From contig NZ_AP017655.1 of the NCBI RefSeq assembly GCF_002355855.1, positions 2,979,001 to 3,043,000 of the forward strand: DNA of 64,000 bases, in the 5' to 3' direction. The stretch is from Sphingobium cloacae. Lineage in GTDB: Bacteria; Pseudomonadota; Alphaproteobacteria; Sphingomonadales; Sphingomonadaceae. The notes under the pieces were generated by a model, which had not been told where the DNA came from, made no database searches, and worked only from the letters and a program-made list of their open reading frames with translations. Within the stretch, counting starts at the first letter, position 1. The number at the start of each line of letters is the position of its first letter. The translations under genes were made by a program, and so were the position numbers. Positions 5,527 to 27,144 of the stretch are shown piece by piece.

Positions 5527-6726
5527 GTGAAGATCGTCGTCGTCGCCAGCTTCGCACCATCGCTGGTCAATTTTCGCGGCCGATTGCTGGAAAGCCTCGT
5601 CTCGCGCGGACATGAGGTCATCGCCTGCGCGCCGGAGGACGATCCCGGCGTCGCCGAAACCCTCGGCCGCTGGGGCGTGCGATATCAGGGCATTCCGATG
5701 GCGAGGGCCGGGATCAATCCCTTCGCGGACCTCAGGACATTGGGCGCGCTTGCCCGGCTGTTCCTTCGGCTGCGCCCCGGACTGGTGCTGGCCTATACCC
5801 AGAAGCCGATCATCTATGGCGGCATCGCCGCGCGGCTGACGGCGCCTCGCGCGCGCCGCATCCTCATGTGCAGCGGCCTCGGCTATGCCTGCACGGGCGG
5901 CGAGGGGGCGGACAGGCTCCGGGCATTCGTCCGCGCCGTCATGGCCCGCCTGTTCCGCCTCGCGACGGCGCGCGCGGATCGGGTACTGGTCTTCAACCGG
6001 GACGACGGCATCGACATGCGCAGGCTGGGCATGGTCGCGCCGGGGCAGGACATCGTGCAGGTGCCGGGATCGGGCGTGGACGTGGCGCATTTCCGCGAAA
6101 GACCGCTTCCCGGCGGCCCTCCCACTTTCCTGATGATCGCGCGGCTGCTGCGCGACAAAGGCGTGGTCGATTATGTGGAGGCCGCCCGCCTGGTCCGCAA
6201 ACGCCATCCGGAGGCGCGTTTCCGTATATTGGGGCCGTTCGACCCCAACCCCTCAGCGGTGAGCGAAAGGGACATGCGCGGCTGGGTCGAGGAAGGCACG
6301 ATCGAATATCTCGGTTCCACCCATGACGTCCGGCCTTGCCTCGCCGAAGCCGGCGTGTTCGTCCTTCCCTCCTACTATCGGGAAGGATTGCCGCGAAGCA
6401 CGCTCGAAGCCATGGCGACCGGCCGCGCGATCATCACCACGGACTCTCCGGGATGCCGCGAGCCCGTGGTGCATGGCGAAAATGGCTGGCTCGTCCCCGT
6501 CCGCGATCCGCAGAGCCTCGCCGCGCATATGATGCGCTTCATCGCGCAGCCCGATCTGATGGCCCAGATGGGCAGGAGATCGCGCGAGATCGCGGTCGGC
6601 CATTACTCCGTCGACCAGGTCAACGCCCTGCTGATCGACCTCATGGGATTGAACGAAGACCGCGGTGCCGCCCCTTCCACCCATGACCGGCGCGCCATGG
6701 CGGCATCGCTGGCCCAGCAATCATGA
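5527..6726 (+). CDS. GT4 glycosyltransferase, PglA/WbnK-like
   Basis: A 399-residue GT-B protein. The N-terminal domain starts KIVVVASFAPSLVNFR. The C-terminal nucleotide-sugar domain carries FLMIARLLRDKGVVDYVEAA, then VFVLPSYYREGLPRSTLEAM, the EGxPxxxxEA retaining-transferase motif, followed by GRAIITTDSPGCREPV. I chose the GTG at 5527 because GGAGG (5517-5521) precedes it by five bases. A longer frame opens at 5494. Its stop overlaps the ATG of the initiating sugar transferase (ATGA at 6723), so it probably adds the second sugar to the lipid-linked residue made by that enzyme. Confidence 0.85.
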   Translation: MKIVVVASFAPSLVNFRGRLLESLVSRGHEVIACAPEDDPGVAETLGRWGVRYQGIPMARAGINPFADLRTLGALARLFLRLRPGLVLAYTQKPIIYGGIAARLTAPRARRILMCSGLGYACTGGEGADRLRAFVRAVMARLFRLATARADRVLVFNRDDGIDMRRLGMVAPGQDIVQVPGSGVDVAHFRERPLPGGPPTFLMIARLLRDKGVVDYVEAARLVRKRHPEARFRILGPFDPNPSAVSERDMRGWVEEGTIEYLGSTHDVRPCLAEAGVFVLPSYYREGLPRSTLEAMATGRAIITTDSPGCREPVVHGENGWLVPVRDPQSLAAHMMRFIAQPDLMAQMGRRSREIAVGHYSVDQVNALLIDLMGLNEDRGAAPSTHDRRAMAASLAQQS

Positions 6727-7439
6727 AAGCCCGCGTCCTGATCGAAGGAATCGTCGCCGCGCTGATGCTCGTGCTGGCCGCGCCTGTGCTGTTGGGCATC
6801 GCGGTCGCGGTCCGGCTTTCCATGGGACGGCCGGTCATCTTCTCGCAGATCCGCAGCGGCCTCCACCGCCACCCCTATGCCTTGCGGAAATTCCGCACCA
6901 TGACGGATGCGCTTGACGGGAACGGGCAGCTTCTGCCGGACGATCTTCGCACCACGCGGGTCGGCGCTTTCCTGCGGCGCAGCCGGTTGGACGAACTTCC
7001 CGAGTTATGGAACATCGTCAAGGGCGAGATGAGCTTCATCGGTCCCCGTCCGCTGCTTCCCCCCACCATCGCGGTCATGCAGGACAAGGGCGAACGACGG
7101 TGCAGCGTGCGGCCGGGGCTGACCGGCTGGGCGCAGACGAAGGGGGGCCAGCTTCTCAGCCTCAGCGAGAAACTGGATCTCGACCTCTGGTATATCGACC
7201 ATGCCTCCCTCCGGCTGGATGCGGTCATCCTGTGGCGCACGCTGCTGGTCGTGCTGCTGGGCGACCGGCGATCCTATGCGCCTTCCTCGATGAACATGCA
7301 GGCCAGCACCGAGGACCGCCGCTACGCCACCCCCACGGGCCTGTCATCGGGCCGCGCGGGCGATTCGGCGGCTCGCGATATTGCCGAGCCGGAAGAGGAG
7401 GAGCCGATGGCGCGCGAACGGGCGGCCGGACGGCGATAG
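6723..7439 (+). CDS. Initiating undecaprenyl-phosphate sugar-1-phosphate transferase (PglC/ExoY family)
   Basis: A 238-residue monotopic membrane enzyme. One N-terminal hydrophobic helix (about residues 5-30) is followed by the catalytic domain with LRKFRTM, then SRLDELPELWNIVKGEMSFI (the D-E pair is catalytic), GPRPL, and PGLTGWAQTKGG. The short form, without the multi-helix N-terminal domain of WbaP, is that of PglC-like enzymes. It moves a sugar phosphate from a UDP-sugar to undecaprenyl phosphate and so starts each repeat unit. The C terminus has a low-complexity acidic/basic tail. It is coupled to the upstream GT4 gene by a 4-base overlap. Confidence 0.92.
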   Translation: MKARVLIEGIVAALMLVLAAPVLLGIAVAVRLSMGRPVIFSQIRSGLHRHPYALRKFRTMTDALDGNGQLLPDDLRTTRVGAFLRRSRLDELPELWNIVKGEMSFIGPRPLLPPTIAVMQDKGERRCSVRPGLTGWAQTKGGQLLSLSEKLDLDLWYIDHASLRLDAVILWRTLLVVLLGDRRSYAPSSMNMQASTEDRRYATPTGLSSGRAGDSAARDIAEPEEEEPMARERAAGRR

Positions 7440-7470
7440 CAGAGCGGACATGACTGGAGGGAGTGAAGGA

Positions 7471-8379
7471 ATGAAGCCGAATTTTTTCATCGTCGGGGCG
7501 CCCAAATGCGGAACGACGGCATGGGTGGAATATCTTCGTTCGCATCCCGGCATCTTCATTTCGGCGGCGAAGGAGCCGCATCATTTTTCCCGCGACTTCC
7601 CCAAATGGAACTTCGTTCCCCGGCTGGACGATTATCTGGCGCTGTTCGAGAAAAGCGGGCCCGCGTCCGCGGTGGGCGAAGGATCGGTACGCTATCTCTA
7701 TTCGAAGGTGGCGGCGCGGGAGATCCACAAGTTCAATTCCGACGCCCGCATTCTCATCTTCCTGCGCGATCAGGAGGATTTCCTTCCCTCGCTCCATCAT
7801 CAGCAGCTTTACAATGGCGATGAGAATATCGAGGATTTCGAACGGGCATGGCGCTATTCAGCGGAGCGTCCCGCCTATAGCATCCCTGCCTGCTGCCGGG
7901 AACCGAGCTTCCTCGACTATGCGGCCATGGGCCGCTTCCATGAACAGGTGGAGCGTTATTACGCAATCTTTCCGCACGATCAGATCCGGGTCATCTGCTT
8001 TCGCGACTGGGTCGGCGATCCTCGCGGCACCTATCTGGAGATACTCGATTTCCTGGGGCTGGAGGATGATGGCCGGACCGATTTTCCGCGCATCAACGAA
8101 GCCAAATATCACAAGAGCCGGCTGGTCGCATCCCTGACGCAGATTCCGCCCGGCTGGGTGCGCCGCTCTTCGGCGGTCCTGACCCGGATCGCCGGAAAGG
8201 AGATGGGCCTATTGGCCCGCCTGCGCCGGATGAACCGGGGCACCGGTTACCGGACGCGGATCGATCCGTCGCTCAAGGAGGAAATCCGGCGCTATTATGA
8301 AAGGGACAACGCCCTTCTCCATGAGCGCATCGGCGCCCGGCTCGGCCGGGCCGCGCGACCGGTGCGATCCGCCGCCTGA
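7471..8379 (+). CDS. PAPS-dependent sulfotransferase
   Basis: A 302-residue cytoplasmic protein. FFIVGAPKCGTTAWVEYL is the 5'-phosphosulfate loop (Lys12, Gly14, Thr15, Thr16), and ARILIFLRDQEDFLPSLHHQ provides the Arg/Ser 3'-phosphate site. The rest is the usual sulfotransferase_1/3 layout. I chose the ATG at 7471, preceded by GAAGGA, because MKPNFF places the P-loop at its normal position; an upstream ATG at 7450 is possible. Position right after the initiating transferase suggests it sulfates a sugar of the exopolysaccharide or its lipid-linked precursor. No PAPS synthesis genes are nearby. Confidence 0.85.
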   Translation: MKPNFFIVGAPKCGTTAWVEYLRSHPGIFISAAKEPHHFSRDFPKWNFVPRLDDYLALFEKSGPASAVGEGSVRYLYSKVAAREIHKFNSDARILIFLRDQEDFLPSLHHQQLYNGDENIEDFERAWRYSAERPAYSIPACCREPSFLDYAAMGRFHEQVERYYAIFPHDQIRVICFRDWVGDPRGTYLEILDFLGLEDDGRTDFPRINEAKYHKSRLVASLTQIPPGWVRRSSAVLTRIAGKEMGLLARLRRMNRGTGYRTRIDPSLKEEIRRYYERDNALLHERIGARLGRAARPVRSAA

Positions 8380-8451: not shown

Positions 8452-9144
8452 TCAGGCGGTCGGCGCTATCTGGTTTTCGGCAGCGGGAAGATCGAAGGCG
8501 GTGAGGCCGTGATGAGCGGCCCAGATCGCCGCCTGCGTGCGGTTCTTGACCCCGATCTTGCGGAGCACCGCCTTGACGTGGACCTTCACCCGCGGCTCGC
8601 TGATCTGCAGGCAACGGGAGGCGAGCTTGTTGGGATAGCCCATCACCAGGCACCGCAATATGCCCGTTTCCTGGGGACTGAGCTTGATGTCGCGCAGATC
8701 CTGGCCGGGGTCCGCCTGCTCGGCTTGCGGCAGGAAGGAAGGAAGATTGTCCGCAAGCTGGGAAGGCAGCACCTTGGCGCCCATCGCCACCAGGTTGAGC
8801 GTGCGGATCAGGGATTCGCAGCTGATCTCCGAAACGACCAGACCGTCGGCGCCCTGGCGCAAGGCCGAGACCAGCCCGTTGAAATCGAAACTGTCCGCCA
8901 GCACCACGATATGCGCATGGGGCATGCGTTCCTTGATCGGCGCCAGTTGATGGCCTTCTCCCTCCGTTGCGGAGGCTTCGACCAGAATGATCGGCTCCGG
9001 CCCGCCGCCCGATGGGATGTCCATCTCCTCGATGGAACTGACCGATTGAAGAACACGCAGATTTTCCTCCGCAAGAATGCGGACAAGGCCTTCGCGCGTA
9101 ATCGAATTGCGCGCGACGACGATGACGTCGATTGAGTCAGCCAT
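8452..9144 (-). CDS. LuxR-type regulator with degenerate receiver domain
   Basis: A 230-residue protein. Residues 1-120 have the receiver fold, but the acidic pair of strand 1 is replaced (VIVVARNSITREG), the phospho-acceptor position reads LVEASAT, and the conserved lysine after strand 5 is missing (GLVVSE). Residues about 155-220 are a LuxR/GerE helix-turn-helix (LSPQETGILRCLVMGY ... VKVHVKAVLRK). The ATG at 9144 is preceded by AGGTGAGA; a much longer open frame upstream is not coding. It is closely similar in its DNA-binding part to the regulator at 32929-33705. It probably controls the surrounding polysaccharide genes without classical phosphorylation. Confidence 0.82.
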   Translation of the reverse strand: MADSIDVIVVARNSITREGLVRILAEENLRVLQSVSSIEEMDIPSGGGPEPIILVEASATEGEGHQLAPIKERMPHAHIVVLADSFDFNGLVSALRQGADGLVVSEISCESLIRTLNLVAMGAKVLPSQLADNLPSFLPQAEQADPGQDLRDIKLSPQETGILRCLVMGYPNKLASRCLQISEPRVKVHVKAVLRKIGVKNRTQAAIWAAHHGLTAFDLPAAENQIAPTA

Positions 9145-9397: not shown

Positions 9398-10450
9398 ATG
9401 ACTGAAACGCTGAATGTCGGCCTCAATGGCTTTGGGCGCTTCGGGCTGCACCTGCTCAAATATTGGCTCGACAGGAATGAGGATACGCCCTGGAAGATAG
9501 GCTGGATCAATGATGACAGCCTGTCCTTGCAGGACGCCTACCGGCTGATGCTGCAGGACGATTATGTCATCTTCAACAAATACAAGGTCTATGCGGAAGG
9601 CGACACGTTGACCTTCCTCCAGCCCAATGGGCGCAAGCATGTCCTGCAATATAGCAATGTTCCCAAGGACCGGATTCCCTGGGTGGGCCTGCCCGACCTC
9701 TTCTTCGAATGTTCGGGCAAGAACACCATCGCGGAACGGTGCGACGATTTCCTGACCGGCCGGACGAAACAGGTCCTTATTTCCGCGACCTCATGGGATG
9801 CCGATGCGACGCTGGTCTATGGCTTCAACCATCAGGACTGGCGCTCCGACCTTCGGACGATTTCCTATGGCAGTTGCACCGTCAACGGCTTCGTGCCCCT
9901 GGCCGAATGGTTCAACGCCATGTACGGCGTCGTCAGCAGCGACGTGAACGTCATCCACAACGAAGCGCGCCACAAGCGGGGCGGGGAGACGCTGCTGCGC
10001 AAATTCTGCACGCTGGAAAAATCCGGCCCGCAATTACTGTCATGGCTGGCGGGCGATCGGTTCATCGTGAACTATACCGTCGTTCCCTATAGCGGCGTGT
10101 CGATGATGGACATGCGGTTCCGCTGTCAGCGACCACCCACGGCCGAGCAGCTTGCCGGCGACCTTTCGGTTGCGATGGCCGATGGCGGGCCGCTCGCCGG
10201 AATCTATGACATGGACGTCGCGGACATCGGACCGGAGGTCTATAATTGCACCGCCTATTCGGCGGTCATCATCCGCAACGCCATCAAGGTGCTGCATGAC
10301 GAGGTCTATCTCCAGACCTATTTCGACACCGAAAATTCGGTGAACCGCTATTATGACCTCTCCACCTTCGTGGCGCGCAAGCTGCTGGGGCAGGAGAGCC
10401 GGGACGACCACAAGGTGGTCGCCTTCTCCCAGCCGATGGAAGCCTGTTGA
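9398..10450 (+). CDS. Glyceraldehyde-3-phosphate dehydrogenase paralogue
   Basis: A 350-residue protein with the GAPDH layout. GLNGFGRFG (residues 8-16) is the NAD-binding loop. SCTVNG holds the catalytic cysteine (Cys160) and VIHNEA the partner histidine (His187), 27 residues apart as in canonical GAPDH. VVPYSGVSMMDM replaces the usual VPTPNVSVVDL. The sequence is clearly divergent, for example SCTVNGF for SCTTNCL, so this is not the glycolytic enzyme. It heads a tight run with an ACP (stop and next start overlap or nearly so), an acyl-adenylate ligase and a phosphatase. I infer that it oxidises a phosphorylated aldehyde to an acyl-enzyme for an ACP-linked pathway. Confidence 0.85.
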   Translation: MTETLNVGLNGFGRFGLHLLKYWLDRNEDTPWKIGWINDDSLSLQDAYRLMLQDDYVIFNKYKVYAEGDTLTFLQPNGRKHVLQYSNVPKDRIPWVGLPDLFFECSGKNTIAERCDDFLTGRTKQVLISATSWDADATLVYGFNHQDWRSDLRTISYGSCTVNGFVPLAEWFNAMYGVVSSDVNVIHNEARHKRGGETLLRKFCTLEKSGPQLLSWLAGDRFIVNYTVVPYSGVSMMDMRFRCQRPPTAEQLAGDLSVAMADGGPLAGIYDMDVADIGPEVYNCTAYSAVIIRNAIKVLHDEVYLQTYFDTENSVNRYYDLSTFVARKLLGQESRDDHKVVAFSQPMEAC

Positions 10451-10452
10451 CC

Positions 10453-10713
10453 ATGGCCCGGGGCGGAGACATCGGGATGGCGGACGTCGCCGCTCTGTTC
10501 GCGGACGTCTTCGGGATTCCGGCGGAGACGGTCGAAAGCGCGACCAGCGCGGATGACGTGGGCACATGGGATTCCATGGGGCATCTGGTGCTGATCCAGA
10601 CCATCGAGGAACGGTTCAGGATCACGCTGGAAATGAACGAGATGTTCGAGATCGTCGATGCGGGGTCCGCCTTGACGGTATTGCAACGCCATGGAGCGAG
10701 CGGTCATGCCTGA
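10453..10713 (+). CDS. Acyl carrier protein
   Basis: An 86-residue acidic ACP-family protein. The phosphopantetheine site is WDSMGHLVLI with Ser41. Helix 1 (VAALFADVFGIPAETV) and the D-S-M-G motif match discrete ACPs of specialised pathways rather than the fatty-acid AcpP (DSL). The start is uncertain: TTG at 10447 overlaps the GAPDH stop, ATG at 10453 is used here, and ATG at 10477 has GGGCGGAG upstream. Its end overlaps the start of the acyl-adenylate ligase, which is the likely loading enzyme. Confidence 0.82.
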   Translation: MARGGDIGMADVAALFADVFGIPAETVESATSADDVGTWDSMGHLVLIQTIEERFRITLEMNEMFEIVDAGSALTVLQRHGASGHA

Positions 10714-12211
10714 CGACCAGATCGCCAATCTGTCGCAGGCCGTTCGCCAATGGGCTGAGGCCGACCCGGATCGCGACTATCTGATCGTCGGGGACAGGCG
10801 CTACAGCTATGGCGAGGTCGATGCACTGGTCGACCGGTGCTGCGTCGCCTTCGCCGGGCTCGGGCTGAAGCCGGGGGACATCGTCAGCGCCGTGATCGAA
10901 AACGGCGCGGCTTATGTCGTGCTCTACATGGCGTCGCTGCGCTACGGGACGGTGTTCAATCCCTTCCCCTTCACCATGGAGGCGCAGGACATCCTGTCCT
11001 ATCTGCGCCATATCCGGCCCCGGCTGCTGCTGTGCCGCAAGCAGCATCATGAGCGGCTGTCCGGCCAGCAGGACCATCCGGTCCACCTGCTTGGCCCGTC
11101 CTTTCCGGAGGATTTGCCGCAAGGGGCGAGCGGGTGGCCGACATTCCAGCCGGAGGAAAGATCGCCCGCCTGCCTCTATTATTCGTCCGGCACGACCGGC
11201 AATCCCAAATGCATCCTGTTCAGCCACGCCAATATGATGGCGAATGTCCGGGCCATCGTGTCCGGCTTCCGCTTCGGGGAGCGGGAACGCCACCTGATCG
11301 TCCTGCCGCTCGGCCATACGGCGTCGATCAACTATTCGCTGCTGCCCTGCACCCTGACGGGCGGCGCGCTGGTCATCGCCCCATCCTTCTGGAGCGCGCG
11401 GCCCCGTTTCTGGAACCTGGTCCGCGCCCACGCGATCACCTATGTCGAGGTGGTGCCCAGCGTGCTGGCGGCGCTTCTGGAAACCCCCTTCGCCGCCGAT
11501 GCATCCGATTTCCTGCCCGCGCTGCGTTTCATCGGTTGCGGGTCGTCGACGCTGCCCCATGAATTGCAGCGCCGCTTCATGGAGCGGTTCGGAGTCAGGG
11601 TCGCCAATCTCTATGGCCTGTCCGAAACGGGGCCGTCGCATGTCGACTATCCGATGGACCCCGATTGGCAACCCGGCTCCATCGGTTTCCCGCTGGCCTG
11701 CAATGAATGTTTCATCGCGGATGAGGACGGCCGACCCCTGCCTCCGGGATCGGTCGGGGAGATCGCGATCCGCGGCCCCAATGTCTTCATCCAATATCTC
11801 GGCAACCGGGTACTATACGACAGCGTGGTGAGGGGCGGGGCCTTTTTTACCGGCGATCTGGGCAGGGTGGACGAAAAGGGCCGCTTCTGGTTCGTCGGGC
11901 GGAAGAAGGAACTCATCATCAAGGGCGGCGTCAACATCGCGCCCGACGAGATCGACGAGGTCATCTACAAGCTGCCGGGCGTCGCCATATCGCTGACGGT
12001 GGGCAAGGCGGACGACTATCTGGGCGAGAAGATTCACTCCTTCATCGTCCCGGCGGACGGCGTGTCGCTGTCGGAGGCGGAGATACAGGCCCATTGCCGG
12101 TCCTTCCTGTCGAGCAGCAAGATACCGGACCAGATTTCCTTCGTCGCGGCCATTCCCGCCGGCCATTCGGGCAAGTTCCTGCGCCGCGAAATGCAGAGGC
12201 AGGCGTCTTGA
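10706..12211 (+). CDS. Acyl-adenylate ligase (AMP-dependent synthetase family)
   Basis: A 501-residue ANL-superfamily enzyme. LYYSSGTTGNPKCILFSHAN is the AMP-binding P-loop. YGLSETGPSHV is motif A5, GDLGRVDEKGRFWFVGRKKE is motif A7/A8, and HSGKFLRREM contains the catalytic lysine (Lys490). Such enzymes activate a carboxylic acid as acyl-AMP and load it onto CoA or an ACP. The ATG at 10706 overlaps the ACP stop by 8 bases and has GGAGCGAG upstream; an in-frame ATG at 10691 also exists. The ACP directly upstream is the likely acceptor. The acid is unknown. Confidence 0.88.
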   Translation: MPDDQIANLSQAVRQWAEADPDRDYLIVGDRRYSYGEVDALVDRCCVAFAGLGLKPGDIVSAVIENGAAYVVLYMASLRYGTVFNPFPFTMEAQDILSYLRHIRPRLLLCRKQHHERLSGQQDHPVHLLGPSFPEDLPQGASGWPTFQPEERSPACLYYSSGTTGNPKCILFSHANMMANVRAIVSGFRFGERERHLIVLPLGHTASINYSLLPCTLTGGALVIAPSFWSARPRFWNLVRAHAITYVEVVPSVLAALLETPFAADASDFLPALRFIGCGSSTLPHELQRRFMERFGVRVANLYGLSETGPSHVDYPMDPDWQPGSIGFPLACNECFIADEDGRPLPPGSVGEIAIRGPNVFIQYLGNRVLYDSVVRGGAFFTGDLGRVDEKGRFWFVGRKKELIIKGGVNIAPDEIDEVIYKLPGVAISLTVGKADDYLGEKIHSFIVPADGVSLSEAEIQAHCRSFLSSSKIPDQISFVAAIPAGHSGKFLRREMQRQAS

Positions 12212-13089
12212 CCCGCTTCGCACCGGAACTGCGGCTGGCGCTGGACGCGGCGGAGGCCATCGGACGGACCCAGATGGAACGGTTCGACCAGAACTACCGC
12301 GTGCTCCGCAAGGAAAGCCGGGAATTCGTCACCAGCGTGGACCTCGAATGCCACATGCTCGCGCATGAGCGGCTGGGGATCGCCGCGCCCGTCCTGTCGG
12401 AAGAGACGCGCGGCGATTTCGACTTCGGGCATGACCTGTGCTGGATCGTCGATCCGCTCGACGGCTCCCATAATTATATCGCGGGCCTACCCAATTTCGG
12501 CGTCTCGGTCGCGCTGGTAGAGAATGGCCGGTTCGTGCTGGGCGTGATCGGCATCCCCTTCTTCGGCGAAGTCTATCATGCGGTGGAGGGCGAAGGCGCC
12601 TTCCGCAACGATGCGCCCATCCGCATTTCCCCCAATGCCGTGCTGTCCAAGGCGATGATCGCCTATGACAACCAGTTCCACCTGTCGCCTCACGGGTTCG
12701 CGCGGTATCGCCGCCTGACCGACGCGGCGTTCACGACGCGGATTTTGGGGTCGGCCGCCTATGATCTCGCGCTGGTCGGCCGGGGTCGGATCGACGCGCG
12801 GGTGCTCAATTGCACCAAGGTCTTCGATGTCGCCGCCGGGATCGTCCTCGTGCGGGAGGCAGGCGGGCGCGTCACGGATTTTTCCGGCGGGGAAGTCGGC
12901 GTCGCGAGCAAGGAAATCCTCGCCAGCAACGGCCACACCCATGACGCCCTGCTCTCAGTCCTTGGGGATATGAACGATGAAGAAGCTGGTCCTTTACACG
13001 GCGGGGTCCGGATCGCGCGAAATCCTGGTGAGCATTCGCGACTCCAACCGCCATCGGCCGGAATGGGAGCCGGTCGCCTTTGTCGATGA
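12208..13089 (+). CDS. Inositol monophosphatase-family phosphatase (IMPase/CysQ-like)
   Basis: A 293-residue sugar-phosphatase-family protein. Metal ligands are visible: Glu65 in LSEET, Asp82 and Asp85 in DPLDGSHNY, and Asp207 in VFDVAAGIVLV. The start is probably TTG at 12208, whose TTGA overlaps the ligase stop; no ATG or GTG lies close. The family removes phosphate from inositol phosphates, PAP or related small molecules. Here it could dephosphorylate a phospho-acyl intermediate of the GAPDH/ACP pathway. The frame runs 113 bases into the next gene, giving a C-terminal tail of about 37 residues beyond the usual family end. Confidence 0.85.
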   Translation: MTRFAPELRLALDAAEAIGRTQMERFDQNYRVLRKESREFVTSVDLECHMLAHERLGIAAPVLSEETRGDFDFGHDLCWIVDPLDGSHNYIAGLPNFGVSVALVENGRFVLGVIGIPFFGEVYHAVEGEGAFRNDAPIRISPNAVLSKAMIAYDNQFHLSPHGFARYRRLTDAAFTTRILGSAAYDLALVGRGRIDARVLNCTKVFDVAAGIVLVREAGGRVTDFSGGEVGVASKEILASNGHTHDALLSVLGDMNDEEAGPLHGGVRIARNPGEHSRLQPPSAGMGAGRLCR

Positions 13090-13633
13090 AGACCCGGCGA
13101 AGATCGGCACGACCATCGACGGCCTGCCCGTCCGCGGCCCGGATCACGACTTCGGCCCCGATCTCCATGCCCTGTGCGGCGCGATGGACCCTATCGTCCG
13201 CAAGCGTATGTCGGAGGAACTGATCGAGGGGCGGGGCCAGACGCTCGCGACGATCATCCACCATTCGGCGCTCGTCGCCGACGATCTGGTCCACGGTCCC
13301 GGCCTTGTCCTGATGCCGGGGGTCAAGGTGAATTTCGACGTCCGCTTCGGCAAGGGCGTCCACATCTTGTGGAACGGCATGCTGGGCCATGGCCTGCGCG
13401 TCGCCGATTACGGGACGTTGCTGACCAATGTGACCGTGCTGGCCGGTTGCACGGTCGGCTATGCCGCCACGGTCGGCAGCGGCAGCGTACTCAGCCCCGG
13501 CGCCACGGTGGAGGCCGGCGCGCTGGTGGGCGTGGGAACGACCCTGCTGCACAAGGTGGATGCGGGCCAATCGATCATGAGCATGCCGCGCGTGGTGAGA
13601 TGGAAACGTCCGCCCGAAACCATCGCTCACTGA
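12977..13633 (+). CDS. NeuD/PglD-family sugar N- or O-acyltransferase
   Basis: A 218-residue protein. The N-terminal Rossmann-like domain (KLVLYTAGSGSREIL) binds the UDP-sugar. The C-terminal part is a left-handed beta helix of hexapeptide repeats (LVADDLVHGPGLVLMPGVKV onward). MLGHGLRVADY places His138 at the position of the catalytic base of PglD, which acetylates the amino group of UDP-4-amino sugars. It overlaps the phosphatase gene by 113 bases and so is co-transcribed with the GAPDH/ACP run. It could either complete UDP-diNAc-bacillosamine synthesis or transfer the ACP-bound acyl group. Confidence 0.82.
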   Translation: MKKLVLYTAGSGSREILVSIRDSNRHRPEWEPVAFVDEDPAKIGTTIDGLPVRGPDHDFGPDLHALCGAMDPIVRKRMSEELIEGRGQTLATIIHHSALVADDLVHGPGLVLMPGVKVNFDVRFGKGVHILWNGMLGHGLRVADYGTLLTNVTVLAGCTVGYAATVGSGSVLSPGATVEAGALVGVGTTLLHKVDAGQSIMSMPRVVRWKRPPETIAH

Positions 13634-19177: not shown

Positions 19178-20425
19178 ATGCTTCAGCTTTCCTCCGCTTC
19201 CGACGCCCTCTCCCAACCGTCCGTCCCGGCGCGGGGCGCAGCGCGATGCGCGACGCCGGTTCGCATCTGCTTCCCCTTCGGCGGCGGCGCGGTGGGGGGC
19301 AGCCACATCTCGGCCACGCAGCTCATCCGCCGGCTCGACCGGAGCCGGTTCAGTCCCCTCATCGTGCTGCATCATGGCGAGGGCCAGTTCGGCACGTTCC
19401 TGCGGGCGGAAGGGCTGGAGCATGTCGTCCTGCCCGATGCGGGTTTCTTCGGCAATTCCTGCGGCGTCCCTCCGCCGAAGGGGGTGGCGGGCGCTGTGGC
19501 GGACCAATGGCGGCTGGCCCGCTTCCTCCGGGAGCAGCAAGTCGGCATCGTGCACACCAACGAAGGGGCGATGCATGTGTCATGGGCGCTGCCGGCCCGG
19601 CTCGCCGGAGCAAGGCTGCTCTGGCATCACCGTGGAAGCTCGGACGCCAGAGGCGTGCGCTTCCTGGCGCCCTTCGCGGCGCATCGCATCGTCGGCGTGT
19701 CGGATTACGCCCTGTCGGAAGTCCGGCGAAGCAAGAGCGCCGCGCGCAAGACGGCGGTGGTCTACAGCCCCTTCGACGTCGATGCCCAGCCCATCGACAG
19801 GGATCAGGCCCATCGGGCGCTGACGTCGGAACTGGGCGTCGGTCCCGATACCCGGCTCATCGGCTTCTTCGGCCACATGCTGGAGCGCAAGCGGCCGCTG
19901 TTCTTCGTCGATGTCCTGTCCTGCATGGCCAGAATGCGGCCGGACCTCCGCTTCATGGGGCTGATATTCGGTTCGCCGCTCGTGCCGGGAATGGATGTCC
20001 AGGTGCTTCACAAGGCAAGGACGCTGGGCGTGGCCCCTCGCTTGCGCCTGATGGGCTTCCGCTATCCCGGCGCGCCGCTGATGGCCGGATGCGACATCCA
20101 TGCCGTGCCCGCCGTGCACGAGCCTTTCGGCCGGTCGCTGATCGAGGCGATGTTGCTGGGCACGCCGGTGGTGGCCGCCGCGTCGGGCGGCAATATCGAG
20201 GCCATCGACCATGGCGTCACCGGCCTGCTGTCCCATGCCGACGATCCGGCCGAAATGGCTTCGGCGATCATCGGCCTGCTCGATTCGCCGGACCGGCTGG
20301 CGGCCATCGCGGCCGCCGCATGGGCCGATGCCACCCGGCGTTACAGCGCCGATCGCCATGTCGAACAGATCAGCGCGATCTACCAGTCGCTTCTGCCCGG
20401 CGGGATGAGCGGGCCGCCATGGTGA
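19178..20425 (+). CDS. GT4 glycosyltransferase
   Basis: A 415-residue GT-B enzyme. The N-terminal domain has ICFPFGGGAVGGSHISATQL, a glycine-rich acceptor loop. IVHTNEGAMHVSWALPAR is similar to plant-type sucrose-synthase-like GT4 members, and HAVPAVHEPFGRSLIEAMLL carries the EPFGRxxxEA donor-site motif. It starts one base after the stop of the previous GT gene and its last 7 bases overlap the lyase gene, so all three are one transcript. Confidence 0.87.
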   Translation: MLQLSSASDALSQPSVPARGAARCATPVRICFPFGGGAVGGSHISATQLIRRLDRSRFSPLIVLHHGEGQFGTFLRAEGLEHVVLPDAGFFGNSCGVPPPKGVAGAVADQWRLARFLREQQVGIVHTNEGAMHVSWALPARLAGARLLWHHRGSSDARGVRFLAPFAAHRIVGVSDYALSEVRRSKSAARKTAVVYSPFDVDAQPIDRDQAHRALTSELGVGPDTRLIGFFGHMLERKRPLFFVDVLSCMARMRPDLRFMGLIFGSPLVPGMDVQVLHKARTLGVAPRLRLMGFRYPGAPLMAGCDIHAVPAVHEPFGRSLIEAMLLGTPVVAAASGGNIEAIDHGVTGLLSHADDPAEMASAIIGLLDSPDRLAAIAAAAWADATRRYSADRHVEQISAIYQSLLPGGMSGPPW

Positions 20426-21837
20426 GCCAGAGCGCCATGGCCATGCTGGGCATCGGCATCGCGGCCCTGCTCGCGACGCCGTTCGTGGCGCCGTCCGATC
20501 TTGCCCAGCGCCTCAAGAGCGGCGGCGCGGATGCGGATCTGGACGGATCGTCGGTCCTGCCCGAAGTGCCCGGCGTGGAAGCCTTTCCCGGTGCGGAAGG
20601 CTATGGCCGCCGGTCGCGCGGCGGGCGGGGCGGAGCCATCATCCCCGTCACCACGCTGGCGGATCGCGGCCCCGGCTCGCTGCGCGCCTGCATAGAGGCG
20701 CAGGGGCCGCGCGTCTGCGTCTTTCGCGTCAGCGGCGTCATCCGATTCACGACGCGGCGGCCGATCATCACCAATCCCTATATCACCATCGCGGGCCAGA
20801 CGGCGCCAGGCGGCGGCATCATCGTCACCCATGGCGGCGGCGTGGACGGCTATACGCCGATCATCGCCAAGGACACGCATGACGTCATCATCCGCCATAT
20901 CCGCGTCCGCACCGACCTGAATGCGGAGGACCGGGGCAGCAACAGTTCCTTCCTGTTCGAAAACAGCCGCAACGTCATCTTCGATCATGTGAGCGGCGCA
21001 TGGGCGCAGGATCAGGTGATGAGCGGATATGACCACAATGACAATATCACCATCTCCAACTCGATTTTCGTGCAGGGCATTCCGCGCCACGACAAATGCG
21101 CCCTGCTCGCCTCCAATCCGAAAGCGCCGCAGAAGCTCAGCTTCATCCGCAATCTCTGCGCGCATAACGGGGACCGCAATCCCGATGTGAACTTCATGCC
21201 GCTGTCCTGCGTCGAGATATTGAACAACGTCTTCTACAATGGCGATTCCCAGTTCACCGAAGTGCATGAGGTCTTCGGCGGCACGCCTGTCAGCATCGTC
21301 GGCAACACCTATCGCAAGGGACCGGACAGCGCGGACGCCATTCCCGCCATCGACCGCGTGCTGGACAGCAGCACGGGGATGTCGAAAATCTTCATGGCGG
21401 ACAACAGGCTGGACAAGGTCAAGGTGCTGAAGACCGGCACGGTGGAAATATCGCAGGTGTCGCGTCCCGTCTGCCCGCTCAGCACGCGGCTCGTTCCGGC
21501 GGAGCAGGCCTATCTTCAGGTGCTGGACAAGGCGGGCGCTTTCCCCAGGGATGCGCTGGACGTGCGCACCGTGGCCGAGGTTCGGGCGCGGACCGGATCG
21601 ATCATCCACGATGCGGCCATGCGCAGCGGCCCGCGCCCCTTGCCCGCCATCGCGCCCGGAACGCCCTATGTCGATCTGGACGAGGACGGCATGGCCGACA
21701 GCTGGGAGCGGGCCCATGGCCTCGACCCCCGGCGCAACGATGCGTGGGAGGATGCCGATCACGACCGCTGGCTGAACCTGGACGAGTTTCTCGACTTCGC
21801 CCATCGAGAGGTGATGGCAGGGCGGCCGATTCCCTGA
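20419..21837 (+). CDS. Exported right-handed beta-helix polysaccharide lyase (pectate-lyase-like)
   Basis: A 472-residue protein. An N-terminal hydrophobic stretch (MAMLGIGIAALLATPF) is a signal peptide or anchor. AFPGAEGYGRRSRGGRGG and TVTTLADRG-like VTTLADRGPGSLRACIEA are the start of PL1/PL9-type pectate-lyase-like proteins, and the core shows repeated N-I-x-I-x-N-S rungs (DNITISNSIF, SCVEILNNVFYN). The C terminus has an EF-hand-like repeat (DLDEDGMADSWE, then DADHDRWLNLDEF) that should bind calcium. It probably trims or releases the polymer in the periplasm or outside. An open frame continues far upstream of 20419 but is a shadow of the GT genes. Confidence 0.8.
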   Translation: MVSQSAMAMLGIGIAALLATPFVAPSDLAQRLKSGGADADLDGSSVLPEVPGVEAFPGAEGYGRRSRGGRGGAIIPVTTLADRGPGSLRACIEAQGPRVCVFRVSGVIRFTTRRPIITNPYITIAGQTAPGGGIIVTHGGGVDGYTPIIAKDTHDVIIRHIRVRTDLNAEDRGSNSSFLFENSRNVIFDHVSGAWAQDQVMSGYDHNDNITISNSIFVQGIPRHDKCALLASNPKAPQKLSFIRNLCAHNGDRNPDVNFMPLSCVEILNNVFYNGDSQFTEVHEVFGGTPVSIVGNTYRKGPDSADAIPAIDRVLDSSTGMSKIFMADNRLDKVKVLKTGTVEISQVSRPVCPLSTRLVPAEQAYLQVLDKAGAFPRDALDVRTVAEVRARTGSIIHDAAMRSGPRPLPAIAPGTPYVDLDEDGMADSWERAHGLDPRRNDAWEDADHDRWLNLDEFLDFAHREVMAGRPIP

Positions 21838-23725: not shown

Positions 23726-24997
23726 CTAAGGAGTTACATCATTCGAGAAAGGCCGTGCGGCATCGGGGTCGCAGGCCGAGTCGAGCGCTTCGACCAATGT
23801 GTCGATCGTCAGGTCCATCGCCTGCGCATCCAGGAGATGATCGACGCACAGCATGAGGCTGCGCTCGCCCACCTCGGCCGCCACGGGCAGCGGATGGCGG
23901 TTGGGATGGGCGCTGTCGCGGACGGCCAGTTCCCGCGACATGTCGGGGCACGATCCGGTCCCGGCCGGGATGCCCCGGTCGTTGAGGGCCGCGATGATGT
24001 CCGCCCTTCCCTTTCCCGGCGCGAAAAGCCCGTACTCCAGCATGAGGTAGAATTTGTAGAAGGCATGGTCCACGCCTTCGGGGACGACCGGCAGCCGGAC
24101 CAGTGGATGACCGCCCAGCCCGCGCCGCAACCGATCCGCATGGGCGCGCCGCCGCGCCAGCCATGCGGGCAGCTTGCGTAGCTGCGCCCGCCCGATGGCC
24201 GCCTGCATTTCCGTCATGCGCCAGTTGGTGCCGAAGCTTTCATGGAGATAGCGAAAGGCGTTTCCGGGCGAAGGCGCGCCCATCATCGCGACATTCTTGC
24301 CATGATCCTTATAGGCCCAGGCCCGCCGCCAGTGCGCCTCTTCCCTCAGCAGCAGCATCCCGCCTTCGCCGCCCGTCGACAGGATCTTGTCGGTGCAAAA
24401 GGAGAAGGCGGCGGCATGTCCGAAGGAGCCCACCTTCCGCCCACCAATGGCCGCGCCATGCGCCTGCGCGCAATCCTCCACCAGCCACAGACCATATTCC
24501 GCGGCGATGGCGTCCAAGGCTGCCATGTCGCAGGGCCAGCCGGCAAGATGGACGCACAGGATCGCCCTCGTGCGCGCGCCGATCAGGGGTTCGACGCCGG
24601 CCGGGTCGATCGTGTGGCTGTTCGCGTCGATGTCGGCGAATACCGGCACCGCCCCGACCGCCGCCACCGCCGAAGCGCTGGCGAAGAAGCTGCGAGCGGG
24701 CACGATGACTTCGTCGCCCGCCCCGATCCCCAGCGCGCGGAAAGCGAGTTCGAGGGCGAGCGTGCCATTGGCGAGCGAAATGGCGTGCGGCATCCCGCAA
24801 TAGGCCGCGAACTCCCGCTCGAAGGCGCGGCATTCGTCGCCATGCACCAGCGAATTGACCCGGCCGCTGGCCAGCACGCGGACGACCGCGCCGATCTCGT
24901 CGGCCTCATATTGGGGCCAGCGCCGGTCGGGCGGCGGGAAGCGCGCCGCGATCGGCGCGACCGAAACGGGCTGCTCCATGGCGCGCAGGTCGCTCAT
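23726..24997 (-). CDS. DegT/DnrJ/EryC1-family sugar aminotransferase
   Basis: A 423-residue PLP enzyme. The lysine that binds PLP is in AFSFCTDKILSTGGEGGML. The family motifs SLANGTLALELAF, GDEVIVPARSFFASASAVA and VEDCAQAHGAAIGGRKVGS are present in order. Such enzymes convert a 4-keto (or 3-keto) UDP-sugar into the amino sugar. It overlaps the dehydratase gene (ATGA at 24994), which would supply the keto-sugar, as PglF and PglE do in bacillosamine synthesis. The length is slightly above the usual 370-400 because of N-terminal and C-terminal tails. Confidence 0.88.
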   Translation of the reverse strand: MSDLRAMEQPVSVAPIAARFPPPDRRWPQYEADEIGAVVRVLASGRVNSLVHGDECRAFEREFAAYCGMPHAISLANGTLALELAFRALGIGAGDEVIVPARSFFASASAVAAVGAVPVFADIDANSHTIDPAGVEPLIGARTRAILCVHLAGWPCDMAALDAIAAEYGLWLVEDCAQAHGAAIGGRKVGSFGHAAAFSFCTDKILSTGGEGGMLLLREEAHWRRAWAYKDHGKNVAMMGAPSPGNAFRYLHESFGTNWRMTEMQAAIGRAQLRKLPAWLARRRAHADRLRRGLGGHPLVRLPVVPEGVDHAFYKFYLMLEYGLFAPGKGRADIIAALNDRGIPAGTGSCPDMSRELAVRDSAHPNRHPLPVAAEVGERSLMLCVDHLLDAQAMDLTIDTLVEALDSACDPDAARPFSNDVTP

Positions 24998-27144
24998 TCG
25001 TTCGCCGCCTTGCCCACCAGATCGATCTCCCGCGTCAATTCGCGCAGCGTCCTGGCCCAGGTCGATTGCGCCGGGGCGCGCAGCAACTCCTTCATCAGGT
25101 CCTGCACGCCTTCCTCGTCCCGCTCCGCGATGAGGTGGGACAGGTCGGCAAAGGCCTTCACCAGCTTTTCCAGCGGCACGGGGCAGGGACTCGCCTCGAT
25201 CACGCCGGGGATGGAGGAACGAAGCTGCTCCTCGGTCGTGTCGAACAGTTCCTCATAGAGCTTTTCGCCGGGACGGAGGCCGACGAACTGGATCGGCACG
25301 TCGATGTCGGGACGAAGGCCCGCCAGGCGGATCATCCGGCGCGCGATGTCGACGATCCTGATCGGCTCGCCCATGTCGAGGACGAAGATGGTGCCGCGGT
25401 CGATCTTCGCCTCCATGGCTCGCGCGCTGCTCTGGAGGATCAACTGCACCGCTTCCGCGACGGTCATGAAATAGCGTTTCATGTCGGGATGGGTGACGGT
25501 CAACGGCTTGCCCGCCGCCATCTGCTGCTGGAACAGCGGCACCAGCGATCCGCTGGAACCCAGCACATTGCCGAAACGCACCGTCATGAAGCGCGGGCTT
25601 TCGGGGTCGCATTGTCCGATCAGGTCCAGCGCCTGGCAGTAAAGCTCGCCCAGCCGCTTGGTCGCGCCCATCACGCCGACGGGATTGACGGCCTTGTCGG
25701 TCGACACCTGCACCATGGCGAGCGCGCCGTGCGCGCAGACGGCATCGGCGACATTGCGCGTGCCCAGCACATTGGTATGCGCGCCTTCGCAAGGATTGCA
25801 CTCGACGATGGGGACATGCTTGAGCGCGGCGGCGTGGAAGACGATCTCCGGCTCTCGCCGCCGGAACACATCGTCGAGCGAACCGCGCTCGCGGATCGAG
25901 CAGAGTTCGGGATGGCAGAGGATGTCGGGGAACAAGTCCCGCACCTGCATTTCGATGGAGTAGAGGTTGAACTCGCAATGATCGAGCAGGACGATCGCCG
26001 ACGGCTTGAACGTGGCGATCTGGCGCACCAGTTCGCCGCCGATGGTGCCGCCCGCGCCGGTCACCAATATCCGGCGCCCCCGGATCAGCCGCTCCACGAC
26101 GTTGCGCTGGAGCGAGACTTCCGGGCGGCCGAGCAGATCGGCCAGCTCGAAATGCTTGATCTCGATGCGCGGTTCGCCTTCCTTCGTCCTTTGCAGGTCC
26201 CGGGCATGGGCGACGGTGAGGTCGCACTGATCGGCCAGCTTCACCAGCCGCGAAAAGGCGCGGCGCGGCATCGTCGTATCGCCCCTTATGACGAGGCTTT
26301 CGGGCTTCAGGCCCTTCGCGGCGAGCGCTTCGGTGATCTGCGACAACTTGTCGGGCGCGCCCAGCACCGGCACGCCCGCGACCTGAAGCCGGGTATCCCG
26401 CCCGTCGAAGGTCAGCGCGCCGACGACATGAAAGCTGTTCGTGCGATCGGCGCGCAGCATTTCCAGCAGCGACCGGATCCAGTCCAGTTCGCCCAGCAGC
26501 AGGATATTATGCCTCTCGCCGCGTGGAACGATATGCGCGCGGGCGAATTCCCGCAGCCCGCGCCGGATCGTCCGCGCGCCGATCATCGCCACCAGCAGCA
26601 GCGCCGAATGCAGCAGCGCGAAGCCGATCACGTCCAGCGGCACGGCCCTGATTTTCGCCGAGACGATGAGGCACAGGCCCCATGCGGCCGCCATGCTGCC
26701 CGCCACCGCCGTCGACAACATGATGCAGTCGCCAAAGGACAGGAAGCGCCAGCAGCGCCAGTAAAGGCCGGTGAGGCAGAGGGTGAAGACCGCCGCCATG
26801 CTGAAGAACAGCATCAGGCTGGGGCGGTCGAGAAAGGCAGCGGAAACCGGCCCCGGAATCGCCAGGACGACCAGCAGCAGCGTCAGGAGGACCAGCGCTC
26901 CGTCGATCAGCATCAGCGCCGCGAAGCGCGCTGGCGCGGGGAAGCCGGTCGGCCGGGTCAGCATGTCATGCAGCAGGACCGCCCAGAGCGGCGCGCCGGT
27001 GGCAATCTGTACTTCATCCTCTTCGGGATCATCCGGGAGCGGATCGGCCGGAAACGGATCATACTGGGCGGGCGGAATGCTCGCGGCCATAGGGACGCCC
27101 TTGCGCGCTGGGGGAAACGGCGTCCGGGCGGCTCGTGCCTGCAT
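24994..27144 (-). CDS. Membrane-bound UDP-sugar 4,6-dehydratase (CapD/WbpM/PglF family)
   Basis: A 716-residue protein. Four transmembrane segments lie in about residues 60-190, a CoA-binding-like domain follows, then the SDR domain with LVTGAGGTIGGELVRQ (NAD loop), STDKAVNPVGVMGATKR (family form of the active site, M in place of the usual Y, with K) and RFGNVLGSSGSLVPLFQ. WbpM-type enzymes make UDP-4-keto-6-deoxy-GlcNAc. It is translationally coupled to the aminotransferase downstream. ATG at 27090 (MAASIPPAQ) is a possible alternative start. Confidence 0.9.
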   Translation of the reverse strand: MQARAARTPFPPARKGVPMAASIPPAQYDPFPADPLPDDPEEDEVQIATGAPLWAVLLHDMLTRPTGFPAPARFAALMLIDGALVLLTLLLVVLAIPGPVSAAFLDRPSLMLFFSMAAVFTLCLTGLYWRCWRFLSFGDCIMLSTAVAGSMAAAWGLCLIVSAKIRAVPLDVIGFALLHSALLLVAMIGARTIRRGLREFARAHIVPRGERHNILLLGELDWIRSLLEMLRADRTNSFHVVGALTFDGRDTRLQVAGVPVLGAPDKLSQITEALAAKGLKPESLVIRGDTTMPRRAFSRLVKLADQCDLTVAHARDLQRTKEGEPRIEIKHFELADLLGRPEVSLQRNVVERLIRGRRILVTGAGGTIGGELVRQIATFKPSAIVLLDHCEFNLYSIEMQVRDLFPDILCHPELCSIRERGSLDDVFRRREPEIVFHAAALKHVPIVECNPCEGAHTNVLGTRNVADAVCAHGALAMVQVSTDKAVNPVGVMGATKRLGELYCQALDLIGQCDPESPRFMTVRFGNVLGSSGSLVPLFQQQMAAGKPLTVTHPDMKRYFMTVAEAVQLILQSSARAMEAKIDRGTIFVLDMGEPIRIVDIARRMIRLAGLRPDIDVPIQFVGLRPGEKLYEELFDTTEEQLRSSIPGVIEASPCPVPLEKLVKAFADLSHLIAERDEEGVQDLMKELLRAPAQSTWARTLRELTREIDLVGKAANE

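What the first reader, a model, noticed from the sequence alone, without database searches (positions are those of the whole stretch)
9398..13633. A GAPDH paralogue, ACP, acyl-adenylate ligase and phosphatase form a tight operon inside a polysaccharide locus
Seen: the four genes overlap or nearly overlap and are followed by a PglD-like transferase and an OafA-type acyltransferase. The GAPDH keeps its catalytic pair 27 residues apart (Cys160/His187), the ACP has its phosphopantetheine serine, the ligase its lysine and the phosphatase its metal aspartates. Known: GAPDH makes acyl-enzyme intermediates from phospho-aldehydes, and Sphingomonas gellan carries glyceryl and acetyl groups. Inference: the operon makes an ACP-bound hydroxyacyl unit such as glyceroyl (phosphoglyceroyl from GAPDH or glycerate via the ligase, phosphate removed by the phosphatase) and the membrane acyltransferase places it on the polymer. 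I know of no described system with this gene set.
Basis: partly seen in the sequence, partly recalled or inferred. Interest (0 to 1): 0.75.

Follow-up and report, generated by a model that had tools for sequence, protein, structure and literature searches.

The report
Acyl-supply cassette for surface sugars
A small run of neighbouring genes in a Sphingobium-type bacterium probably makes an unusual small acid and hands it to an amino sugar of its surface polysaccharide, and related gene runs turn up in very different bacteria and archaea.

Summary
The gene run is real: GAPDH-like, ACP, AMP-ligase, IMPase-type phosphatase and NeuD/PglD-like genes overlap or nearly abut inside a Wzx/Wzy-type polysaccharide locus of a Sphingobium-genus genome. 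The 'GAPDH' is no glycolytic enzyme. It belongs to a separate family (539 proteins at E<=1e-30) that keeps Cys, His and the NAD-ribose Asp but lacks both canonical phosphate pockets in 37 of 37 aligned members. Of 40 family loci, 7 (four phyla) carry ACP+ligase, 5 of them with IMPase, and one more has a ligase fragment; 7 carry HAD phosphatase + ATP-grasp ligase instead, 5 of these with NeuB; 11 carry a cytidylyltransferase-like gene and/or LicD; 12 none of these. Ligase-IMPase fusions exist. Best reading: the cassette makes a small hydroxy acid, loads it on ACP, and the NeuD-like enzyme puts it on the 4-amino group of a sugar made by the locus's dehydratase/aminotransferase pair, as Vibrio cholerae O1 does with 2,4-dihydroxybutyrate. 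The acyl group is unidentified. New variant of a known kind.

The parts
9398..10450 (+). GAPDH-superfamily oxidoreductase of a separate family (catalytic Cys160/His187, canonical phosphate-site residues absent)
10453..10713 (+). acyl carrier protein (86 aa) of the cassette
   Evidence: PP-binding 26.8 bits, over cut-off; no other match to this query in the genome at E<=1e-3
10706..12211 (+). AMP-forming acyl ligase; nearest solved structures by sequence include oxalyl-, feruloyl- and malonyl-CoA synthetases
12208..13089 (+). inositol-monophosphatase-family phosphatase (TTG start); fused to the ligase in three homologues
12977..13633 (+). NeuD/PglD/VioB-type hexapeptide-repeat N-acyltransferase with invariant His138 and Pro-Arg in place of the Pro-Ala of the NPA loop
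13653..15743 (+). OafA-type AT3 acyltransferase fused to an SGNH domain; probably a separate O-acylation, link to the cassette weak
23729..24997 (-). DegT aminotransferase (PseC/LegC/PglE-like), the only strong DegT match of the genome (317 bits; the other seven matches have 37 or fewer)
24997..27144 (-). 4,6-dehydratase-like protein (Polysacc_synt_2; PglF/FlaA1-type by recall)
6723..7439 (+). small phosphoglycosyl transferase matching only the C-terminal half of EPS_sugtrans (PglC-like size, recalled)
8452..9090 (-). LuxR/NarL-type regulator, divergent from the cassette (possible regulator)

Best explanation
The cassette makes a short hydroxy-acyl group other than acetyl and delivers it as an amide to a 4-amino-4,6-dideoxy sugar nucleotide of the polysaccharide. 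Proposed order: (1) the dehydratase and aminotransferase at 23.7-27.1 kb make the amino sugar; (2) the GAPDH-like enzyme oxidises a small aldehyde with NAD+ through a Cys160 thioacyl intermediate, without the canonical phosphate pockets; (3) the IMPase removes a phosphate next to the ligase step; (4) the ligase makes acyl-AMP and loads the ACP; (5) the NeuD-like enzyme moves the acyl group from the ACP to the sugar amine. Shown: gene identity, order, recurrence, family-wide residue changes, fusions. Inferred: every catalytic step, its direction and its substrate. Candidate acyl groups are C3-C4 polyhydroxy acids (glyceroyl or erythronoyl type); I cannot choose between them.
For: ACP+ligase beside this family in 7 of 40 loci, plus a ligase fragment in L043, across Pseudomonadota, Chloroflexota, Woesearchaeota and Bdellovibrionota. 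The same HMMs find ligase, ACP, AAC3, HAD, ATP-grasp, CTP and LicD in 0 of 20 canonical gapdh regions. Ligase-IMPase fusions P0130, P0139, P0174. An alternative set, HAD phosphatase + ATP-grasp (LAL_C2) + the same GAPDH-like, in 7 of 40 loci, 5 of these with NeuB: a phosphatase plus a carboxyl-activating enzyme type is kept although the enzymes differ. A recognised N-acyltransferase beside the cassette in 6 of 8 ACP/ligase-type loci and in the window. DUF4910 in L034, L035, L061; Cj1295 (family equation recalled) is linked by mutant and complemented strain with mass spectrometry to the 5-N-(2,3-di-O-methylglyceroyl) form of pseudaminic acid, and the same paper's table lists Cj1296/7 as N-acetyltransferase (PMC3068675, passages). 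One match only to the NeuD query and one strong DegT in the genome. The NeuD subfamily has Pro-Arg in 14 of 14 where the four solved relatives whose alignments were printed have Pro-Ala. Precedent: V. [quoted passage not shown]
Against: No substrate is shown for any enzyme. Twelve of 40 loci show none of the companion genes in the stretch held, and 11 have a cytidylyltransferase-like gene and/or LicD, which points to a phosphodiester rather than an acyl amide, so the family is not tied to one chemistry. IMPase-family genes also lie near canonical gapdh in 13 of 20 control regions, at 157 bits or less against 351-432 (the HMM was built from cassette members, which favours them). The 20 controls all come from the window's own order, the family loci do not. 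No IMPase was found in L035 and L059. S. mellinum has ligase (P0126) and NeuD (P0247) with the same longest-contig length, but none of the 120 GAPDH-like rows listed shows that length (clusters with several contigs show only the longest), so the GAPDH-like gene may be dispensable. Pro-Ala to Pro-Arg suggests a donor other than acetyl-CoA but does not prove it. The dehydratase/aminotransferase pair is 10 kb away on the other strand. The window protein has Thr at the nicotinamide-site Asn. The phosphate-site comparison rests on one MAFFT alignment.
Confidence: 0.55

Rival explanations
1. One reading: the GAPDH makes phosphoglyceroyl from glyceraldehyde-3-phosphate, the phosphatase removes the phosphate, and the OafA-type membrane enzyme puts glyceroyl on the polymer as an ester.
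For: Catalytic Cys/His kept; phosphatase present, and fused to the ligase elsewhere; AT3-SGNH gene directly downstream in window and S. faniae.
Against: T179, D181 and R231 (Ps) replaced and T208/G209 (Pi) in a deletion in 37 of 37 family members, kept in 16 of 16 canonical sequences (site roles recalled). Among the 8 ACP/ligase-type loci AT3 was found only in S. faniae. A canonical GAPDH exists elsewhere in the genome.
Confidence: 0.12
2. Reductive direction: the ligase/ACP (or ATP-grasp) activates an acid and the GAPDH-like enzyme reduces the acyl thioester or acyl phosphate to an aldehyde with NADH, on the way to an unusual sugar or amine.
For: A carboxyl-activating enzyme type partners the dehydrogenase in 14 of 40 loci; the GAPDH superfamily runs in both directions (recalled); the V. 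cholerae tetronate genes include a reductase (recalled).
Against: In the cytidylyltransferase/LicD class (11 of 40 loci) the ligase and ATP-grasp HMMs found nothing. N-acyltransferases next to the cassette point to acyl transfer as the end.
Confidence: 0.15
3. The ACP/ligase part supplies an ordinary acyl chain (3-hydroxybutyryl or a fatty acid) for N-acylation and the GAPDH-like enzyme is a bystander or has an unrelated glycan role.
For: S. mellinum may lack the GAPDH-like gene beside ligase and NeuD; the ligase family is large; the GAPDH-like family also occurs without ligase.
Against: GAPDH-like and ligase in the same 2 of 94 genomes of the genus, and repeated adjacency in 4 phyla.
Confidence: 0.15

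Closest known systems
Vibrio cholerae O1 tetronate genes (rfbK/L and neighbours, VC0248-VC0252)
   Same: Acyl ligase (RfbL) and carrier protein (RfbK) in an O-antigen locus; the acid ends as an amide on a 4-amino-4,6-dideoxy sugar (passages).
   Different: Here a GAPDH-superfamily enzyme and an IMPase accompany them; the other tetronate genes (recalled: LuxC-like reductase, alcohol dehydrogenase) were not seen in the run; sequence relation of the ligases not tested.
Campylobacter jejuni flagellin glycosylation locus, Cj1295 (di-O-methylglyceroyl pseudaminic acid)
   Same: A glyceric-acid derivative as sugar amide; DUF4910 gene (Cj1295 family, recalled) and an N-acyltransferase gene present in related cassettes L034, L035, L061.
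   Different: The window's genome has no DUF4910 match; whether C. jejuni has the GAPDH-like gene was not tested.
NeuD/PglD/VioB sugar N-acetyltransferases
   Same: Sequence (profile E 1.9e-31 to VioB), short-strand repeat pattern in the AF2 model (pLDDT 92), invariant His.
   Different: Pro-Arg replaces Pro-Ala of the NPA loop in 14 of 14 subfamily members; TIGR03570 score under its cut-off.
Glyceraldehyde-3-phosphate / erythrose-4-phosphate dehydrogenases
   Same: Fold (best Foldseek hit E 5.3e-28, TM 0.77/0.80), Cys-His pair, Asp of the NAD-ribose site.
   Different: About 30% identity to the genome's own copy; canonical Ps and Pi residues absent; about 10-residue deletion; separate side of the tree.
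FkbH glyceryl-ACP route of polyketide synthases (recalled)
   Same: Would also give glyceryl-ACP.
   Different: No FkbH-named family among the matches shown for the eight window proteins scanned.

Membership tests
Phosphorylating GAPDH / Epd | catalytic Cys and His | tested here: met
   37 of 37
Phosphorylating GAPDH / Epd | substrate-phosphate (Ps) site T179, D181, R231 | tested here: not met
   0 of 37 keep any of the three at the aligned columns; 16 of 16 canonical keep all (site roles recalled)
Phosphorylating GAPDH / Epd | Pi site T208, G209 | tested here: not met
   gap in 37 of 37; S148 kept in 37 and T150 in 33 of 37
Phosphorylating GAPDH / Epd | curated model cut-off | tested here: not met
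   84.3 bits vs 367.2 for TIGR01534, 78.7 vs 530.55 for TIGR01532; 25.2 vs 31.7 for Gp_dh_N
NeuD/PglD/VioB sugar N-acyltransferase | relation to solved members and invariant His | tested here: met
   VioB best, E 1.9e-31; His138 invariant in 14 of 14
NeuD/PglD/VioB sugar N-acyltransferase | curated model TIGR03570 | tested here: inconclusive
   113.5 bits, cut-off 160.8
NeuD/PglD/VioB sugar N-acyltransferase | NPA loop (tie to acetyl-CoA use recalled) | tested here: not met
   Pro-Arg in 14 of 14; NPA in the four solved relatives printed
V. cholerae O1 tetronate-type acyl-ACP cassette | ligase and ACP in a polysaccharide locus | tested here: met
   definition
V. cholerae O1 tetronate-type acyl-ACP cassette | same oxidoreductases and 2,4-dihydroxybutyrate as product | not tested
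   V. cholerae sequences were not fetched
Cj1295-type glyceroyl modification | DUF4910 protein | tested here: not met
   0 matches in own genome; present in L034, L035, L061
Gellan-type glyceryl substitution (sphingan locus) | sphingan gene set and glyceryl ester | not tested
   no sphingan gene was searched for

The most novel reading that the evidence does not exclude
A family of the GAPDH superfamily that I found no description of, stripped of both canonical phosphate pockets, is a general maker of small acids for surface glycans in bacteria and archaea, with an interchangeable second half: ACP+ligase+IMPase for acyl-ACP, ATP-grasp+HAD for direct amide formation, cytidylyltransferase+LicD for phosphodiesters.
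Probability: 0.4. Interest if true: 0.7.

Novelty: new variant of a known kind. Interest (0 to 1): 0.55.

Why it matters
Surface sugars carry odd N-acyl groups (tetronate, glycerate derivatives) whose making is often unclear. A recognisable cassette would let genomes be read for non-acetyl N-acylation, gives an entry point to the GAPDH-like family (539 proteins at E<=1e-30; several of the listed ones are named glyceraldehyde-3-phosphate dehydrogenase by their source), and offers a ready test of whether a NeuD-type enzyme can take its acyl group from an acyl carrier protein.

Tried and rejected
Rejected: a duplicate glycolytic GAPDH (30% identity to the genome's canonical copy; missing phosphate-site residues). 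No close relative on plasmids: 201 records match, all under 60% identity, and the best ones listed are annotated as ordinary gap where annotated (20 of 201 records listed). Rejected as direct precedent: Shewanella sfmABCDE, which has NeuB and ATP-grasp, but no dehydrogenase of this kind among the five genes described in the passages seen. Led nowhere: literature searches for the gene set and for C. jejuni Cj1302/1303/1307. Erythronate versus glycerate could not be decided: no residue-by-residue comparison with Epd was made. A Pfam tally of 44 neighbour proteins of the ACP/ligase loci (44 is what passed a length, cluster and no-X filter; no L035 row passed, its non-cassette rows hold X; L032 was not included) gave glycosyltransferases (4 members), ABC transporter (3), polysaccharide deacetylase (3), cytidylyltransferase (2), NeuB (1), but also genes without an obvious glycan link (radical SAM, IPPT, ATP-synt_ab).

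Method limits: the HMMs were built from proteins of the same loci, chosen after unsupervised clustering, so family hits are partly by construction (wholly so for the two NTP-transferase loci); greedy stop-to-stop ORFs in high-GC loci miss genes. The 20 control regions come from the window's order, not from the phyla of the family loci. The canonical comparison used 16 of 29 extracted sequences and 4 in the tree. Four of 40 loci (L068-L071) were left out of alignment and tree as fragments. L043 was put in the ACP/ligase class on a 221-aa ligase fragment that misses the coverage rule. L032 and G072 (L003, L079, L081) are the same genome judging by contig coordinates. The tree's bootstrap had not settled and its deep forks are open. 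Of 539 and 886 protein hits only 120 rows each were seen.
Full report
Observation. The six genes are present at the stated places with the stated motifs. The window lies in contig C1 of a 4.55-Mb genome of the same genus as Sphingobium faniae (G072, 'same genus', and L032 share contig coordinates). The surroundings are a polysaccharide locus: glycosyltransferases, a small phosphoglycosyl transferase, a sulfotransferase, a Wzz/ATPase protein, a Polysacc_synt flippase-type protein, a protein just over the Wzy_C cut-off, a DegT aminotransferase and a 4,6-dehydratase-like protein.

The GAPDH-like protein. The genome has one other match, the canonical copy, at 30% identity. A protein search found 539 relatives at E<=1e-30; the 120 listed have 51% or more identity, so this is a family of its own. 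In an alignment of 37 family members (36 of 40 loci plus the window) with 16 canonical GAPDHs, Cys149, His176, Ser148 and the NAD-ribose Asp are kept in 37 of 37, Thr150 in 33, an R195-type arginine in 35; T179, D181 and R231 are replaced in 37 of 37 and T208/G209 fall in a deletion in 37 of 37 (numbering and site roles recalled). The nicotinamide-site Asn (N313) is Asn in 26, Thr in 10 including the window protein, Ser in 1. The AF2 model (pLDDT 88) matches GAPDH and erythrose-4-phosphate dehydrogenase folds about equally. It is built like a GAPDH and may use the same thioacyl chemistry, but its substrate is not bound as a phospho-aldehyde in the known way.

Distribution. A genome scan gave 40 loci in bacteria and archaea; in a sample of 398 genomes of the phylum 7, the window's own among them, had one, in the genus 2 of 94, again with its own. 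Among the 40 loci: ACP+ligase in 7 (L032, L033, L034, L035, L041, L059, L061), five of them with the IMPase, plus L043 with a ligase fragment close to the contig start; HAD+ATP-grasp in 7 (L037, L050, L057, L063, L065, L067, L070), 5 of these with NeuB; a cytidylyltransferase-like gene (10) and/or LicD (8), together 11 loci; an NTP-transferase in 2; none of these in 12. Of 20 canonical gapdh regions, all from the window's order, none has any of these companions, except IMPase-family hits in 13 (at most 157 bits, against 351-432 in the cassettes) and epimerase-type hits in 2. The IMPase beside a GAPDH is therefore weak evidence alone; its fusion to the ligase in P0130, P0139 and P0174 is better evidence. 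The family tree is poorly resolved at depth, but the classes cluster on it (10 changes against a shuffled mean of 25).

What the classes say. The two carboxyl-activating classes each combine a phosphatase (IMPase or HAD; none found in L035 and L059) with an enzyme type that activates a carboxylate (AMP-ligase+ACP, or ATP-grasp with an L-amino-acid-ligase C-terminal domain); the third class has a cytidylyltransferase-like protein (glycerol-3-phosphate cytidylyltransferase-like by recall; one member scanned) and LicD, and the IMPase and HAD HMMs found nothing there. One hypothesis covers all three: the product is a small, possibly phosphorylated, hydroxy acid. If it were D-3-phosphoglycerate no extra dehydrogenase would be needed, which argues for another acid (erythronate type, another stereoisomer or another chain). 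This is inference.

Who receives the acyl group. In the window the NeuD-like gene overlaps the IMPase gene, is the only match to this query in the genome and belongs to a small subfamily (17 proteins at E<=1e-20) with an invariant His and Pro-Arg in 14 of 14 where the four solved relatives printed, VioB among them, read NPA. The only strong DegT of the genome and a PglF-type dehydratase lie in the same locus, which would complete a 4-amino sugar route. In five other cassettes the neighbouring acyltransferase is AAC(3)-like (L034, L035, L041, L043, L061; one member scanned), and in three of those a DUF4910 gene is present. That domain fits, by recall, the Cj1295 family; Cj1295 is needed for the 5-(2,3-di-O-methylglyceroyl)amino form of C. 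jejuni pseudaminic acid (PMC3068675, passages). The window's genome has no DUF4910, so there the amine would be acylated directly. In L033 and L059 the gene after the GAPDH-like one has no Pfam match (L033 member scanned).

Precedent. In V. [quoted passage not shown] The present cassette works like that system; sequence membership was not tested. Searches of the open-access library listed no paper whose title or abstract start describes the GAPDH-like gene with ACP, ligase and phosphatase; subscription papers are mostly not covered. Other papers seen: PMC4975691 (one passage), PMC3765264 (passages), PMC3283744 (one passage).

Against the reading. The acid, the direction of the dehydrogenase and the acyl donor of the NeuD-like enzyme are all unproved. 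S. mellinum appears to have ligase and NeuD without a listed GAPDH-like relative. Twelve loci have no recognised companion. L041's neighbours were not tabulated one by one; one of them reads like flagellar FliI (recalled; one ATP-synt_ab member in the tally), so that cassette may serve flagellin rather than a polysaccharide.

Noticed in passing
window 7465-8379 (+): Sulfotransferase-domain gene between the phosphoglycosyl transferase and the cassette: the polysaccharide may also be sulfated.
   Followed up: no
window 12977-13089: IMPase and NeuD-like frames overlap by 113 bases; the open frames overlap similarly in S. faniae (L032 13577-13689).
   Followed up: partly
window 20422-21834 (+): Protein reading like a secreted polysaccharide lyase (recalled resemblance) without any Pfam match at E<=1e-3.
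   Followed up: no
L051, L052, L053, L056, L058, L060, L066: GAPDH-like with cytidylyltransferase-like and LicD genes; in L052, L053, L058, L066 with a shared protein of about 1000 aa that reads like an autotransporter, in L056 near proteins that read like DUF4214 (names recalled): perhaps a modification of surface proteins.
   Followed up: partly
L034, L041, L043, L061: Conserved small protein of 137-152 aa before the AAC(3)-type gene; two members scanned gave no Pfam match; reads like a VOC/glyoxalase fold (recalled).
   Followed up: no
L044, L046, L047, L048 (Magnetococcales): GAPDH-like gene with SYGSCIIN instead of SYGSCTVN; in L046-L048 followed by genes that read as gatA/gatB (recalled), so perhaps outside a glycan locus.
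   Followed up: no
L036, L038, L049: GAPDH-like gene beside a protein cluster whose L038 member reads as PdxA (vitamin B6 pathway, recalled); the link may be incidental.
   Followed up: no
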